A stretch of DNA of 64,000 bases from Solirubrobacterales bacterium (lineage in GTDB: Bacteria; Actinomycetota; Thermoleophilia; Solirubrobacterales; JACPNS01), in assembly GCA_016185345.1 (NCBI GenBank), contig JACPNS010000022.1, forward strand, positions 1-64,000, written 5' to 3'. Within the stretch, counting starts at the first letter, position 1. The number at the start of each line of letters is the position of its first letter. A model generated the notes under the pieces. That model was not told the origin of the DNA. It saw nothing but the letters and a program-made list of their open reading frames with translations, and did no database searches. Position numbers and translations under genes: made by a program. This document shows positions 46,968 through 54,497 of this stretch, piece after piece.

Positions 46968-49058
<2,091 letters not shown>

Positions 49059-49177: not shown

Positions 49178-49200
49178 AAAAAAAAGGCCCTCGCAGGGCT
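49178..49200 (-). terminator. Intrinsic terminator at the end of the polysaccharide cluster
   Basis: On the minus strand GCCCT-gcg-AGGGC is followed by eight T residues (A-run at 49178-49185 on the plus strand). It would stop transcripts coming from the glycosyltransferase genes before fusA. Confidence 0.8.
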
Positions 49201-49428
49201 CGCGTCGATCCCAGAGGGATCGGCCCTACGTGTAAGTCCCGTTATGTGGTCGAATTGATCGTCATACGTACGACTCGAACCACCCGAACAAGCAGCTTTA
49301 TGCTGCCTTTTCGGCGGCAGACTCCGTTACGCGCGCAGAAATTCCCGCACGACGCGAAGTCGGGAGCGATGTTAGCACGGCATTTGGTGCTGTGCAAGCA
49401 CGCGCTTTCGCCGCTTGCACGCAAGGAT
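49201..49428. other. Intergenic sequence after the glycosyltransferase
   Basis: No gene seen. It contains AGCAGC-ttta-tGCTGCCTTTT (49291-49310) and an overlapping CTGCC/GGCAG hairpin, which could be alternative folds or a further terminator. I found no tmRNA or other RNA gene signature. Including 49059-49177, the whole 370-base gap before fusA is non-coding. Confidence 0.4.
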
Positions 49429-50565
49429 TCAGCCGTCGCTTGAACGCATCCTACGGAGCGGCGCGGTCAGACGCCAGCTCTTCGAACCGCGGAGCGTCTC
49501 GAGCTCGCTCTCAAGCGCATCAATTCGCTGCGCCTGCTGCTTCAGATGCTCGCTGTGCACGTGGGCCTGACCCTCATGCCGCCAGCTCTGTCGCGCCAGC
49601 CGCGCGAGTTCTTCCGCGTCCCCGCGCACTCCTCCTGTCCGCGCGCCATCGCCAGCTGCCTCGGCGCCGAGTTCAATCAAGCGACTTACGTGCTCGTCGA
49701 GGCGATGGTTCTTGACCGTGATCGTCGATCCCCACTTGCCAATCGTCGGCGAGTAGTTGCCGAGGTCCGCCGCGAGTTCCTCGATCGTCGGATCGAATGG
49801 CGTGATGTGGCCGCCGAAGCCGACGAACGAGTACTCGTCGTAATTCTCCGGCGTCAACCAGCCATCGGATCCCCACATGTCGTAGAGGTAAACCGCGCGA
49901 CCACATGCCATCGCCTCGACCGCGACGCGCCCTTTGCCAAGAACGATGTCAGCGCGATTAATCGCGTCTTCTGCGCGCGTTGACTGGCCTTTGCCGGTCG
50001 CTCCAACGTGCTCCCACTCCAACCCAGCGAGGTCCAGGGCGCGCTCGAGGCGATCGCGACGCTCGCCGTCAAGGTAGTTGCTGAGGATCAGTGCTCGACG
50101 GGCCCGATCTGCGATCGGGGCGCGATCGCGAAACCGCGTTCGGTCGACGGGCTGACTGAGCGTGACGACCGGAATGTTGGTTGCAAGCGCCTCCATGCGT
50201 TTGGCCGCCTGGCTCCAGAGCGTCACCACACACGAGACGGCGCCGTCAATCTGAGGCGGCGTGTACGAGTCGAAGTAGGTGCCGTGGGCGATGAACAGTT
50301 GGGGCGTGCTGGGCCGCGCGGCGGCCAGGTCGTGGCTCGCGACGGCGCTATGCGGGACGACGAAGTCGAGCTCGTTCGGCAGCCGATCGGCGTCGCCTAC
50401 GACCCGCAGGCCAAGCGACTCGGCATATTCCGCGGCGACGCCGAGATCTTTGGAATAGAGCCACACTTCGTGTCCCGTACGTTGCATCTCGTCGGCGACG
50501 GTGACGAGATAGGTCTGCACACCCGTGCTGCCGTCGAGCGAGTGTGTTGCATGGGCGATTCGCAT
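49429..50565 (-). CDS. Glycosyltransferase (GT4-like) with C-terminal coiled coil
   Basis: 378 residues. Start MRIAHATHSLDGSTGVQTYL is the GT-B N-domain glycine loop; the C-domain has EWEHVGATGKGQSTRAEDAI and VLGKGRVAVEAMACGRAVYL, the nucleotide-sugar binding E-x7-E-type helix. The end is a heptad helix (KQQAQRIDALESELETLRGS) then KSWRLTAPLRRM, a motif common on cell-surface glycan transferases. Probably adds a sugar to the polysaccharide exported by the neighbouring ABC transporter. Last gene of the cluster. Confidence 0.78.
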   Translation of the reverse strand: MRIAHATHSLDGSTGVQTYLVTVADEMQRTGHEVWLYSKDLGVAAEYAESLGLRVVGDADRLPNELDFVVPHSAVASHDLAAARPSTPQLFIAHGTYFDSYTPPQIDGAVSCVVTLWSQAAKRMEALATNIPVVTLSQPVDRTRFRDRAPIADRARRALILSNYLDGERRDRLERALDLAGLEWEHVGATGKGQSTRAEDAINRADIVLGKGRVAVEAMACGRAVYLYDMWGSDGWLTPENYDEYSFVGFGGHITPFDPTIEELAADLGNYSPTIGKWGSTITVKNHRLDEHVSRLIELGAEAAGDGARTGGVRGDAEELARLARQSWRHEGQAHVHSEHLKQQAQRIDALESELETLRGSKSWRLTAPLRRMRSSDG

Positions 50566-50587
50566 GGGCGCAGTCTATTTTTATGGG

Positions 50588-51469
50588 TCAGATCAGCAGC
50601 CAGCGGGCGGGATAGCTGTTGCGCTCGTTGAGGCGCTGCTCCCTGTAAGGCGCTACCGGTGCGACGATCAAAGAGTCGGGCTTCTCGCCCAGCCACGCAC
50701 CCCACCACGAGAATGTGCTGTTGGCGATGATTGCGTCGTTGCAGGCCGAGATCAATGCGAGATCTTCGAACGGTTGGTTGGCGCCGGAAACGATCTGGGA
50801 CGGCCCCGGCAGGTCGAGTTCGGCTCGGCACCATTCGGGATCGTCGGAAAAGACGAAGAACTTGGCGTCGGGGCGACGCTCAATCAAAAGGTCTGCCGCT
50901 CGCCGGTAGTAGTCCCCGTCGAGAGTGCCGAAACGGCCCGCGGAGCCTGGATCGCTTGCGAGGTCACCACGCCGGACATGCACGGCGACACTCTGATCGA
51001 CGGCGGTGATCTGCTCGCGTCCCGAGCGGATCGCATCGGTCATGCGCGGGCGCAGCTCTCGCTTGATCTCGCTTGAGTACTGCTCGAAATATTTGCCTGT
51101 CTGCCAGTAGCCAGCGAGGAAGGCGTTGGCTGGCGCTGCGAGCAACTTGTCGACTTCGTTGGTGGGATCCTCCTCGCGGACCACGGTCGCGCCGAATCGC
51201 TCGAGGGCGTACGCGTTTTCGGCCTCGTGATCCTGGATGAACGCGAGATCCCTGGGCTCACCGTCGACCACTTCGGCGCGAATGTGGAAAACGCCGAGCG
51301 CGTACGGCCGATCCGCTTCGTGCCCGATGTAGGAGATGTCAAAGCGTAGGCGCGTGTTGGTGCGTTCGGCCACCGCCCGTCCCGTGGCGTACTGGAAGAG
51401 TTGGTTACCCAGACCGCTGATCACTCGAACGGTGGTCCAGCCGCTGCGGCGGCGCAGGCGTACAGGCAT
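50588..51469 (-). CDS. Alpha-1,2-fucosyltransferase-like glycosyltransferase (GT11)
   Basis: 293 residues from ATG 51469, joined to the permease stop as TGATG. VRVISGLGNQLFQYATGRAV is the GT11 N-terminal motif, VAVHVRRGD the GDP-fucose binding HxRRGD motif, and ANSTFSWWGAWLG the C-terminal signature. It would transfer fucose (or a related GDP-sugar) onto a surface glycan. A longer frame from GTG 51568 overlaps the permease and is not needed. Confidence 0.85.
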   Translation of the reverse strand: MPVRLRRRSGWTTVRVISGLGNQLFQYATGRAVAERTNTRLRFDISYIGHEADRPYALGVFHIRAEVVDGEPRDLAFIQDHEAENAYALERFGATVVREEDPTNEVDKLLAAPANAFLAGYWQTGKYFEQYSSEIKRELRPRMTDAIRSGREQITAVDQSVAVHVRRGDLASDPGSAGRFGTLDGDYYRRAADLLIERRPDAKFFVFSDDPEWCRAELDLPGPSQIVSGANQPFEDLALISACNDAIIANSTFSWWGAWLGEKPDSLIVAPVAPYREQRLNERNSYPARWLLI

Positions 51470-52383
51470 CACATCTCTTCGGCGACGGTCGGCGCGAGGC
51501 GCTTGATCGAGAAGTAGCCAAACACCATCAAAAGCACGACGATCCCCATCGGCACGGCGAGCAGCCACCAGCTGCCAAGAACGTCAACGGCGCTTGGCGC
51601 CGACGGGTCGATCGCAGCGTGCCGCATCTGCTGGATAATCGTCGCCACCGGGTTGCACATCATGATCGTGGCCAGCGTTTCGCTGCGCTCCTGGACGAAG
51701 CTGATCGGATAAATCACCGGGCTGGAATAGAAAAGCACCTGGGCGATCACTTCCCAGATCGGCTTGACATCGCGGAAGCGCACGTAGTAGGCGGAAAGGG
51801 CCACCGACACCGAGGCCGTCACGAGGTAGAGCAGAAAAAGCAGGGGGATGATCTGAAGCCAGCCGACGCTCGGCCGCACTCCAGCTATAAGCGCGAAGAC
51901 CATCACCACCCCGTAATTGAGGAACAGCGTCAGGAAGATCGAGGTGACCGACGCCAGCGGGATCGCCATGATCGGAAAACTGATCTTGCGGATCAGGCCT
52001 TCGGCGTTCAGCACAGATGTGATCGCGCCGACCGAGGCCTCCGAGAAGAACGAAAAAAGCACGATGCCAGAGAGCAGGACCGCGCCGTAATAAGCCACGC
52101 CTTCGCCCAACGGCACGACTTCGGTGAACACGAAGTAGAGCACTCCGAACATTGCGAGCGGCTTGACCAACTGCCACGCGTAGCCGAGCACCGAACCGAA
52201 GAACTTGAGCTTGAAGTCGAGGTAGGCAAGCATCCACGTGAGGGCGAAGAAGCGTCGAGCAGTCCCGCCAAGCGCCTGCGGCCCGGCAACGCGGTTGGGC
52301 ATGCGCTCTGTGAGCGCGCTGAGCTGGCCTGCCGAGTAGTCGTGCACCTCTGGCGACGAGCGTGATGCCGTCTCGGCGCTCAT
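51469..52383 (-). CDS. wzm: Polysaccharide ABC exporter permease (Wzm type)
   Basis: 304 residues of the ABC-2 permease family with six membrane segments: LTWMLAYLDFKLKFFGSVLG before the first helix, LFLLYLVTASVSVALSAYYV in the middle, and RFRDVKPIWEVIAQVLFYSS with PVIYPISFV near the end, as in Wzm/TagG/RfbA. It forms the channel for lipid-linked polysaccharide. Its start overlaps the ATPase stop (ATGA). Confidence 0.88.
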   Translation of the reverse strand: MSAETASRSSPEVHDYSAGQLSALTERMPNRVAGPQALGGTARRFFALTWMLAYLDFKLKFFGSVLGYAWQLVKPLAMFGVLYFVFTEVVPLGEGVAYYGAVLLSGIVLFSFFSEASVGAITSVLNAEGLIRKISFPIMAIPLASVTSIFLTLFLNYGVVMVFALIAGVRPSVGWLQIIPLLFLLYLVTASVSVALSAYYVRFRDVKPIWEVIAQVLFYSSPVIYPISFVQERSETLATIMMCNPVATIIQQMRHAAIDPSAPSAVDVLGSWWLLAVPMGIVVLLMVFGYFSIKRLAPTVAEEM

Positions 52384-53183
52384 GCGGCTTCTTCGCTGAC
52401 CTCGTTGAGCTTCGTGTACTTCTCACTGATCTCTTCTGCGCTTCCGATCGCCACGAGGTCACCGCGGTTGATCAGTACCGCGCGATCACAAAAGGTCTTC
52501 ACAGCGTCCATTCCGTGGGTCACGAAGACGATCGTCTTGCCCTCGTCGCGCATACGGCCGAACTGGTCGAAGCATTTTCTCTGGAAGGCCGCGTCGCCGA
52601 CGGCGAGCACTTCGTCGATCAGCATGATGTCTGCGTCGATCTGGAGCATCACGCTGAAGGCCAGGCGGACGTACATGCCCGACGAGTAGTTCTTGAGCTT
52701 TAGATTCTCGAACTCCCAGAGTTCGGCGAAGTCCATAACGTCGTCGAAGCTGTCGCGCGCCTGCTCGACGTTCAGGCCGAGCAACGTGGCGTTGAGCACC
52801 ACGTTGTCAAAGGCTGGAAGCTCGGGGTTGAAGCCGACGCCGAGCTCGATGAACGAACTGATAGACCCGTCGTGGTAAATCGCACCGTCGTTGGGCGAGT
52901 AAATCCCGGCGATGCATTTGAGCAGAGTGCTCTTGCCCGACCCGTTGCGTCCGACCAGTCCGAAGAACTCACCCTTTTCGACATGGAAGCTGACGTTCTT
53001 CAGCGCATCAAACTCGTTGCGCTCCCTGCTGCGGATCGGGTGCAGTGCGCGCTCCTTGAGCGTCTGGACCTTGTCGGCCGGCAACGAGAAACGCTTGGAG
53101 ACGTCGTCGACCAGGAGCGCCGGGAGTGGCGGTGCGGAAATTGACGGTTTGGCTTCGGGCACGGCGGAGAGCTTATGCGTCAT
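52380..53183 (-). CDS. wzt: Polysaccharide ABC exporter ATPase (Wzt type)
   Basis: 267 residues. Walker A GRNGSGKST at 78-86, signature YSSGMYVRLAF, Walker B IMLIDEVLAVGD and the switch His in VFVTHGMD. The FDALKNVSFHVEKGEFFGLV strand is typical of TagH/Wzt. It lacks the C-terminal carbohydrate-binding domain of long Wzt proteins, so export probably does not need recognition of a capped chain end. First intact gene of the cluster. Confidence 0.9.
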   Translation of the reverse strand: MTHKLSAVPEAKPSISAPPLPALLVDDVSKRFSLPADKVQTLKERALHPIRSRERNEFDALKNVSFHVEKGEFFGLVGRNGSGKSTLLKCIAGIYSPNDGAIYHDGSISSFIELGVGFNPELPAFDNVVLNATLLGLNVEQARDSFDDVMDFAELWEFENLKLKNYSSGMYVRLAFSVMLQIDADIMLIDEVLAVGDAAFQRKCFDQFGRMRDEGKTIVFVTHGMDAVKTFCDRAVLINRGDLVAIGSAEEISEKYTKLNEVSEEAA

Positions 53184-53190
53184 GCAGGAA

Positions 53191-53509
53191 CTAACAATTC
53201 CTGTAGTCGATCATCGCCGCGTGGTGACAGCGCTCGATCAGTGCGAGATCTTCTTCGGCGGTGAGACCATAAGACACGACTTGGCTGGGGCCTGGCGTAC
53301 TTTGCCGGCGGGGGCTTCGACGCCCACTCGACAGGGACATAGTCGCCTCTGCGCACCTCGCGCGCGGGGATGTCGTACTCGGAGACTTCTTCGGTCACCC
53401 CGATGCGAGCAAGTGCGAAGTCGCAACCGGCGGCGTACTGGAAAAGCTGATTGCCGATCCCCCCGCGCAGTTGAACGACGGTATGGGGCTCAATGATCGG
53501 CTGCGCCAC
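53191..53509 (-). pseudogene. Decayed GT11 fucosyltransferase
   Basis: The first ~60 codons from 53509 read as a GT11 N-terminus (VVQLRGGIGNQLFQYAAGCD). After about 75 codons the family match continues only in another frame as GPSQVVSYGLTAEEDLALIE and RCHHAAMIDYRNC, ending at TAG 53191-53193, equivalent to the region SQIVSG..FEDLALISACNDAIIANS of the intact GT11 gene at 50588-51469. So the middle (with HxRRGD) and the extreme C-terminus are lost, and a frameshift joins the rest. A 109-residue out-of-frame product could still be translated. Confidence 0.75.
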
Positions 53510-54032: not shown

Positions 54033-54428
54033 CTAGCTGACCTTCACGCCGTAGCGTGAACGGGCCTGCTTGCGGTCTGTGACACCGGAGGTGTCCAGGG
54101 TCCCACGAATGATCTTGTAGCGGACACCCGGCAAGTCCTTGACTCGGCCACCACGCACGAGCACTACCGAGTGCTCCTGGAGGTTGTGGCCTTCGCCGGG
54201 GATGTAGGCCGTGACTTCCATCTGGTTCGTCAGGCGCACGCGAGCGACCTTGCGAAGCGCAGAGTTCGGCTTCTTCGGGGTGGTCGTGTACACACGCGTG
54301 CAGACTCCGCGGCGCTGAGGCGCGCTCTGCTTGGTCTGACCGCCCTTGATCTGCTTGAGACCAGGAGTGGAAACCTTCTTCTTGGGCTTCTTGCGGCCCT
54401 TGCGAACTAGCTGATTGATGCTTGGCAT
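54033..54428 (-). CDS. rpsL: Ribosomal protein uS12
   Basis: 131 residues from ATG 54428 ([20 protein letters not shown]). The decoding loop [19 protein letters not shown] keeps the lysines that are mutated in streptomycin resistance (K52 here, E. coli K43), and [20 protein letters not shown] is intact. Read as a streptomycin-sensitive allele. Frames extending to 54719 or further upstream are spurious. Confidence 0.98.
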
Positions 54429-54497
54429 ACGATGGCGGATGGTAGCAATGCGGGGTAGAGAGCCGCTGGGCGGGTGCGCTGCCAGGCGCGAAATCTT

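What the first reader, a model, noticed from the sequence alone, without database searches (positions are those of the whole stretch)
49178..53509. Polysaccharide export cluster inside the str operon
rpsL-rpsG and fusA-tuf are contiguous in most bacteria. Here five genes (GT11 remnant, wzt, wzm, GT11, GT4), all in the same orientation, lie between rpsG and fusA and end in an intrinsic terminator with eight T residues. There is no obvious promoter between rpsG and the cluster (19-base gap to the pseudogene), so surface glycan export may be driven by the ribosomal promoter. fusA-tuf must then have a separate promoter.
Basis: partly seen in the sequence, partly recalled or inferred. Interest (0 to 1): 0.75.

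Follow-up and report, generated by a model that had tools for sequence, protein, structure and literature searches.

The report
Glycan island beside conserved fusA attenuator
Sugar-export genes really do sit between two core translation genes here, but the 'terminator' thought to end them belongs to a conserved control leader of the elongation-factor gene fusA, with its own promoter and a six- to seven-codon micro-gene, found across the bacterial order and so far undescribed as far as I could find.

Summary
The five co-oriented ORFs between rpsG and fusA are real. All five sampled genomes of the genus carry a glycan-gene island there: 4.5, 8.6 and 16.1 kb on single contigs, plus two split over contigs. 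Content and orientation vary. The window's GT11 remnant is a deleted copy of a GT11 gene intact in relative G001.

It lies about 180 nt downstream of fusA's own -10 site. Across Solirubrobacterales, including relatives with a 260-500 bp rpsG-fusA gap and no insert, fusA is preceded by the same series: extended -10 TGCTAnnnT, a micro-ORF (METSST*-like; MTINSTT* here), then a terminator. The micro-ORF occurs in 45 of 48 leaders (1.2 expected) and the -10 in 48 of 49 (1.3 expected). A sequence model finds it exactly once in 57 of 101 order genomes, next to fusA in 29 of the 30 I could check. No Rfam family matches. Other Thermoleophilia keep rpsG-fusA 33-152 bp apart without it.

So the str operon is already split in this order, and the island sits in that open junction. 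The leader looks like a translation-coupled attenuator of fusA-tuf; the regulation is inferred. Read-through from rpsL into the glycan genes is plausible but untested.

The parts
54439..54447 (-). extended -10 (TGCTACCAT) 19 nt before the rpsL start: rpsL-rpsG promoter, near-leaderless
   Evidence: TGCTAnnnT-type motif upstream of rpsL in 64 of 93 loci, nearly always 17-21 nt before the start codon
53528..53998 (-). rpsG
   Evidence: PF00177 1.1e-57
53180..53509 (-). GT11 deletion remnant; its frame runs open into an ATGA overlap with the wzt start
   Evidence: tblastn of intact G001 GT11; sequence
52380..53183 (-). wzt-like ATPase of a polysaccharide ABC exporter, no C-terminal glycan-binding domain
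   Evidence: PF00005; PDB 6amx 5.2e-59 over the ATPase part, query ends after it
51469..52383 (-). wzm-like permease
   Evidence: PF01061 3.3e-11; PDB 9cfp 1e-15, 9qfx 1.8e-12
50588..51469 (-). GT11 glycosyltransferase
   Evidence: PF01531 4.6e-32; start by comparison with G001
49429..50565 (-). GT4-like glycosyltransferase (weak assignment)
   Evidence: no Pfam or PDB hit; homologue in G004 weakly PF13439
49369..49377 (-). fusA promoter, extended -10 TGCTAACAT
   Evidence: motif 55-150 nt before the micro-ORF in 48 of 49 leaders, 1.3 expected
49242..49265 (-). leader micro-ORF MTINSTT*
   Evidence: ATG micro-ORF of 5-7 codons at this place in 45 of 48 leaders, 1.2 expected
49193..49229 (-). 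candidate antiterminator hairpin, 3' arm = terminator 5' arm
   Evidence: minimum-energy fold; competition supported in this genus only
49178..49199 (-). intrinsic terminator of the fusA leader
   Evidence: conserved in leaders across the order
46968..49058 (-). fusA (EF-G)
   Evidence: PF00009, PF03764 and others

Best explanation
Two things overlap here. (1) In Solirubrobacterales the str operon is split: rpsL-rpsG has an almost leaderless promoter, and fusA-tuf has its own promoter followed by a leader of roughly 170-310 nt with a micro-ORF of usually 6-7 codons, a short structured stretch and an intrinsic terminator 30-180 nt before the fusA start. The leader most likely works as a translation-coupled attenuator: whether and where a ribosome sits on the micro-ORF decides whether the terminator or a competing upstream hairpin forms, so fusA-tuf transcription follows the translation state of the cell. 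(2) Because the rpsG-fusA junction no longer has to be one transcript, it takes insertions; in this genus it holds a fast-changing glycan synthesis and ABC-export island. In the window the island has lost part of itself (GT11 remnant) and runs co-oriented from rpsG, so it may be transcribed by read-through from the rpsL promoter and stop at the fusA leader terminator. Shown: gene content, conservation and position of the elements, split junction, island turnover. Inferred: attenuation, its direction, and read-through.
For: Island: Pfam and PDB matches; glycan genes at this junction in all five genus members with gaps of 4.5, 8.6 and 16.1 kb on single contigs, about 4.7 kb inferred for G002 from a ~216-base contig overlap, and two contigs for G001. 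Flanks are 83-100% identical (rpsG, fusA), while wzm is 82, 69, 40 and 35% identical to the best relatives, the 40% copy in G002 not shown to be in the junction. Leader: -10 in 48/49 vs 1.3 expected; micro-ORF in 45/48 vs 1.2 expected, codon 3 mostly Thr using all four Thr codons; model R1 once per genome in 57/101 order genomes, 29 of the 30 checkable lying 30-147 nt before fusA. Other Thermoleophilia have gaps of 33-152 bp and no leader. No Rfam match. The stretch between micro-ORF and terminator is more structured than shuffles (mean z -0.84, Wilcoxon p 6e-5, relatedness not corrected).
Against: No RNA data. Across the whole order the extra pairing of the terminator's 5' arm is not significant (p 0.33), RNAalifold found no consensus structure, and duplex energies barely exceed shuffles, so an antiterminator is supported in this genus and some groups only. 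The micro-ORF sequence is not tied to one amino acid. A few members (G016, G040, L023) lack the micro-ORF or terminator. A terminator that only blocks read-through from upstream would also explain part of the conservation, though not the micro-ORF.
Confidence: 0.7

Rival explanations
1. One reading: the glycan cluster is the 3' part of a str transcript driven by the rpsL promoter and ended by its own terminator at 49178; fusA-tuf has a separate promoter downstream of it.
For: Co-orientation, 18-bp gap, no terminator found after rpsG, ATGA overlaps remnant-wzt-wzm, no canonical promoter motif of the rpsL/fusA type inside.
Against: The terminator lies downstream of the fusA -10 and is conserved where no cluster exists. 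G003 has the island facing rpsG. Island codon usage is less like ribosomal genes for GT11 and GT4 (0.48-0.49 vs 0.61-0.73).
Confidence: 0.15
2. The leader terminator is only an insulator: it stops transcripts coming from rpsG and the island so that fusA-tuf is run from its own promoter; the micro-ORF has some other or no role.
For: A terminator downstream of variable inserts is useful; antiterminator pairing is weak order-wide.
Against: The terminator is downstream of the fusA promoter, so it would also cut fusA's own transcripts, and the micro-ORF keeps a nearly fixed spacing (mostly 29-43 nt) to it.
Confidence: 0.15
3. The leader is a protein-binding attenuator (for example S7 or EF-G/EF-Tu binding), as proposed for rpsL-leaders, with the micro-ORF part of the RNA motif rather than translated.
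For: rpsL-leaders and a streptococcal fusA attenuator were proposed as r-protein leaders (PMC2965389).
Against: In-frame start and stop with 6-7 codons kept while codons change, and all four Thr codons used at position 3; no conserved fold found.
Confidence: 0.12

Closest known systems
rpsL-leader / streptococcal fusA attenuator (Naville and Gautheret 2010, PMC2965389)
   Same: predicted premature terminator with alternative hairpin between rpsG and fusA
   Different: different phylum; the section read mentions no micro-ORF for it and says these leaders share no conserved sequence; the element here has a conserved promoter, micro-ORF and spacing across an order
rpsL motif of Pelagibacter (Meyer et al. 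2009, PMC2704228)
   Same: RNA motif before rpsL, sometimes before rpsG or fusA
   Different: three-stem junction fold, found only in Pelagibacter and marine metagenomes
Leader-peptide attenuators (his/trp type; ilvBNC of Corynebacterium, PMC11857589, title and abstract only)
   Same: short ORF, alternative hairpins, terminator before the structural gene
   Different: no run of one amino-acid codon; gene controlled is a translation factor
Wzm-Wzt / TarGH polysaccharide ABC exporters
   Same: ATPase and permease pair with glycosyltransferases alongside
   Different: window ATPase has no C-terminal glycan-binding domain; locus sits between rpsG and fusA

Membership tests
Leader-peptide transcription attenuator | promoter upstream of leader and terminator | tested here: met
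   conserved extended -10 in 48/49 leaders; consensus only, no mapped start
Leader-peptide transcription attenuator | short ORF with conserved start, stop and position | tested here: met
   45/48 vs 1.2 expected
Leader-peptide transcription attenuator | intrinsic terminator before the structural gene | tested here: met
Leader-peptide transcription attenuator | mutually exclusive antiterminator | tested here: inconclusive
   clear fold in this genus, not significant across the order
Leader-peptide transcription attenuator | codons matching the regulated pathway (amino-acid-specific subtype) | tested here: not met
   peptides METLQN, MERFTT, MTINSTT etc.; so not an amino-acid-specific attenuator
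Leader-peptide transcription attenuator | read-through depends on translation of the leader | not testable with these tools
   needs reporter or RNA data
rpsL-leader (Naville and Gautheret) / any Rfam leader | match to a described RNA family | tested here: not met
   no Rfam hit in the window stretch or four relatives
Wzm-Wzt polysaccharide ABC exporter | ATPase plus ABC-2 permease of the O-antigen/teichoic acid class | tested here: met
Wzm-Wzt polysaccharide ABC exporter | C-terminal glycan-binding domain of Wzt (present in some members only) | tested here: not met
   267 aa, PDB alignment ends at residue 260; G003 and G004 copies are 417 and 424 aa
str operon (rpsL-rpsG-fusA-tuf as one unit) | rpsG and fusA adjacent without own fusA promoter | tested here: not met
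   gap and conserved fusA promoter across the order

The most novel reading that the evidence does not exclude
An order-wide, previously undescribed RNA switch in which a 6-7-codon micro-ORF lets EF-G and EF-Tu genes sense translation activity itself (possibly EF-G supply, since translocation and ribosome recycling both need EF-G) and adjust fusA-tuf transcription.
Probability: 0.35. Interest if true: 0.75.

Novelty: new variant of a known kind. Interest (0 to 1): 0.58.

Why it matters
How bacteria set the supply of EF-G and EF-Tu apart from ribosomal proteins is a basic question. Here a whole order has uncoupled them, and the uncoupling has a visible device (own promoter, micro-ORF, terminator) that can be tested with one reporter. 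It also explains why foreign or fast-changing genes, here a surface-glycan island, can settle at what is normally one of the most conserved gene junctions in bacteria.

Tried and rejected
RNAalifold on 46 aligned leaders gave no consensus pair, and the covariance model therefore became sequence-only. Duplex test of antiterminator arms against shuffles: only 5 of 47 at p<=0.05. Arm-pairing excess: not significant. The idea of a misassembly was rejected (three single-contig genomes). The sigma-70 scan was uninformative: it found one site on the wrong strand and as many as expected by chance. A weak TGTTAGTT-like site 13 bp before wzt (53196) does not fit the canonical motif and was not counted. 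Weak model hits outside the order (E 3e-4 to 0.009, mostly partial) were read as chance. Literature searches found no description of a fusA leader with a micro-ORF in these bacteria; open-access papers only.

Full report
Check of the observation. The minus strand of the window reads rpsL, rpsG (53998-53528), an 18-base gap, a 109-aa remnant ORF, wzt, wzm, GT11, a GT4-like gene, a 370-bp stretch, fusA, tuf. Remnant, wzt and wzm overlap by ATGA, and the GT11 start overlaps the wzm stop. Wzt is closest among solved structures to the O-antigen ABC transporter ATPase 6amx and to TarH; Wzm to permeases of the same transporter class. The last enzyme has no database match of its own. The remnant matches an intact GT11 of relative G001 at its N-terminus, with a gap, and at its C-terminus in another frame; in G001 this gene is intact and sits behind a fused GT4/GT2 gene next to rpsG. 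So the window's version is a deletion scar.

Is the arrangement real and how widespread? The window is contig 22 of a 2.43-Mb, 97%-complete genome. Three of the five sampled genus members have rpsG, glycan genes and fusA on one contig: window 4.5 kb, G004 8.6 kb, G003 16.1 kb. G002's two contigs overlap by about 216 bases, giving about 4.7 kb, and carry a methyltransferase-like gene, a glycosyltransferase-like gene and a GT4/GT2 fusion resembling those of G004 and G001 (these two ends were not run through Pfam). G001's two contigs both end in wzt. Island genes are far less conserved than the flanks, and in G003 wzt-wzm lie on the other strand, facing rpsG. This is an island with turnover, not a fixed operon.

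What is the junction in relatives? In other families of the order the rpsG-fusA gap ranges from 231 bp to about 15 kb and holds unrelated genes: alcohol dehydrogenase, PEP mutase, MFS transporter, ferritin-like, peptidyl-prolyl isomerase, membrane proteins, often on the opposite strand. In other Thermoleophilia the gap is 33-51 bp, twice 147-152 bp. The junction therefore opened in this order, before or independently of the glycan island.

Why could it open? Upstream of fusA in nearly all these genomes lies the same series: TGCTAnnnT, a leader, a micro-ORF of mostly six codons starting ATG GAG ACN (seven codons, MTINSTT or MTRISTT, in this genus), 29-57 nt, then GGGCCC-loop-GGGCCC-TTTTT, then 30-180 nt to fusA. 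The micro-ORF occurs in 45 of 48 leaders with 1.2 expected from dinucleotide shuffles; the extended -10 in 48 of 49 with 1.3 expected. At codon 3, Thr is kept by ACC, ACG, ACT and ACA, which argues for translation. A sequence model from 40 leaders finds exactly one site in each of 57 of 101 order genomes (strict filters); of 30 genomes with fusA positions at hand, 29 have it 30-147 nt upstream of fusA, and the thirtieth could not be checked. In a sample of the phylum only weak hits appear outside the order. No Rfam family matches. The same -10 type lies 17-21 nt before the rpsL start in 64 of 93 loci, nearly always exactly 19, implying an almost leaderless rpsL mRNA. In the window the canonical motif occurs on this strand only before rpsL and before fusA.

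Consequence for the finding. The terminator with eight T at 49185-49178 belongs to the fusA leader: it is about 180 nt downstream of the fusA -10 and is present in relatives without any insert. Read-through from rpsL into wzt remains plausible and untested.

Mechanism. In this genus the leader alone folds so that the terminator's 5' arm is taken by an upstream arm just after the micro-ORF (arm pairing 0.78-0.93 vs 0.56-0.71 in shuffles for all five members). Across the order the stretch is more structured than shuffles, but competition with the terminator is not significant. My proposal: a ribosome on the micro-ORF controls this stretch, so that translation state sets fusA-tuf read-through. 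The direction is open: slow elongation leaving the arm free would raise EF-G; a ribosome held at the stop codon would lower it.

Comparison. Attenuators before fusA or rpsL are known or predicted in streptococci, proteobacteria and Pelagibacter. The present element shares the idea but not sequence, fold or phylum, and adds a conserved micro-ORF. I file it as a new variant of a known kind; the regulation itself is unproven. The island is an ordinary polysaccharide export locus in an unusual place.

Noticed in passing
L036:9001-12565: Paraconexibacter antarcticus has rpsG, an opposite-strand gene, then tuf: fusA is missing from the str region and must lie elsewhere.
   Followed up: no
L109:2720-2850, L119 (G040, G016): In these genomes the fusA -10 is followed within about 45 nt by a terminator with no micro-ORF: a shortened or degenerate leader.
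   Followed up: partly
window 54428-54447 and relatives: rpsL appears to be transcribed almost leaderless from an extended -10 fixed at 19 nt before the start codon across the order.
   Followed up: partly
L101:7166-8440, L102:3174-4427: Wzt of G004 and G003 is 424 and 417 aa against 267 aa in the window, so the exporter type differs within the genus, with and without a C-terminal extension.
   Followed up: no
L107:3284-4651, L108:15083-16810: PMT_2-type glycosyltransferase/membrane genes sit on the opposite strand in the rpsG-fusA gap of two genomes from two other families.
   Followed up: no
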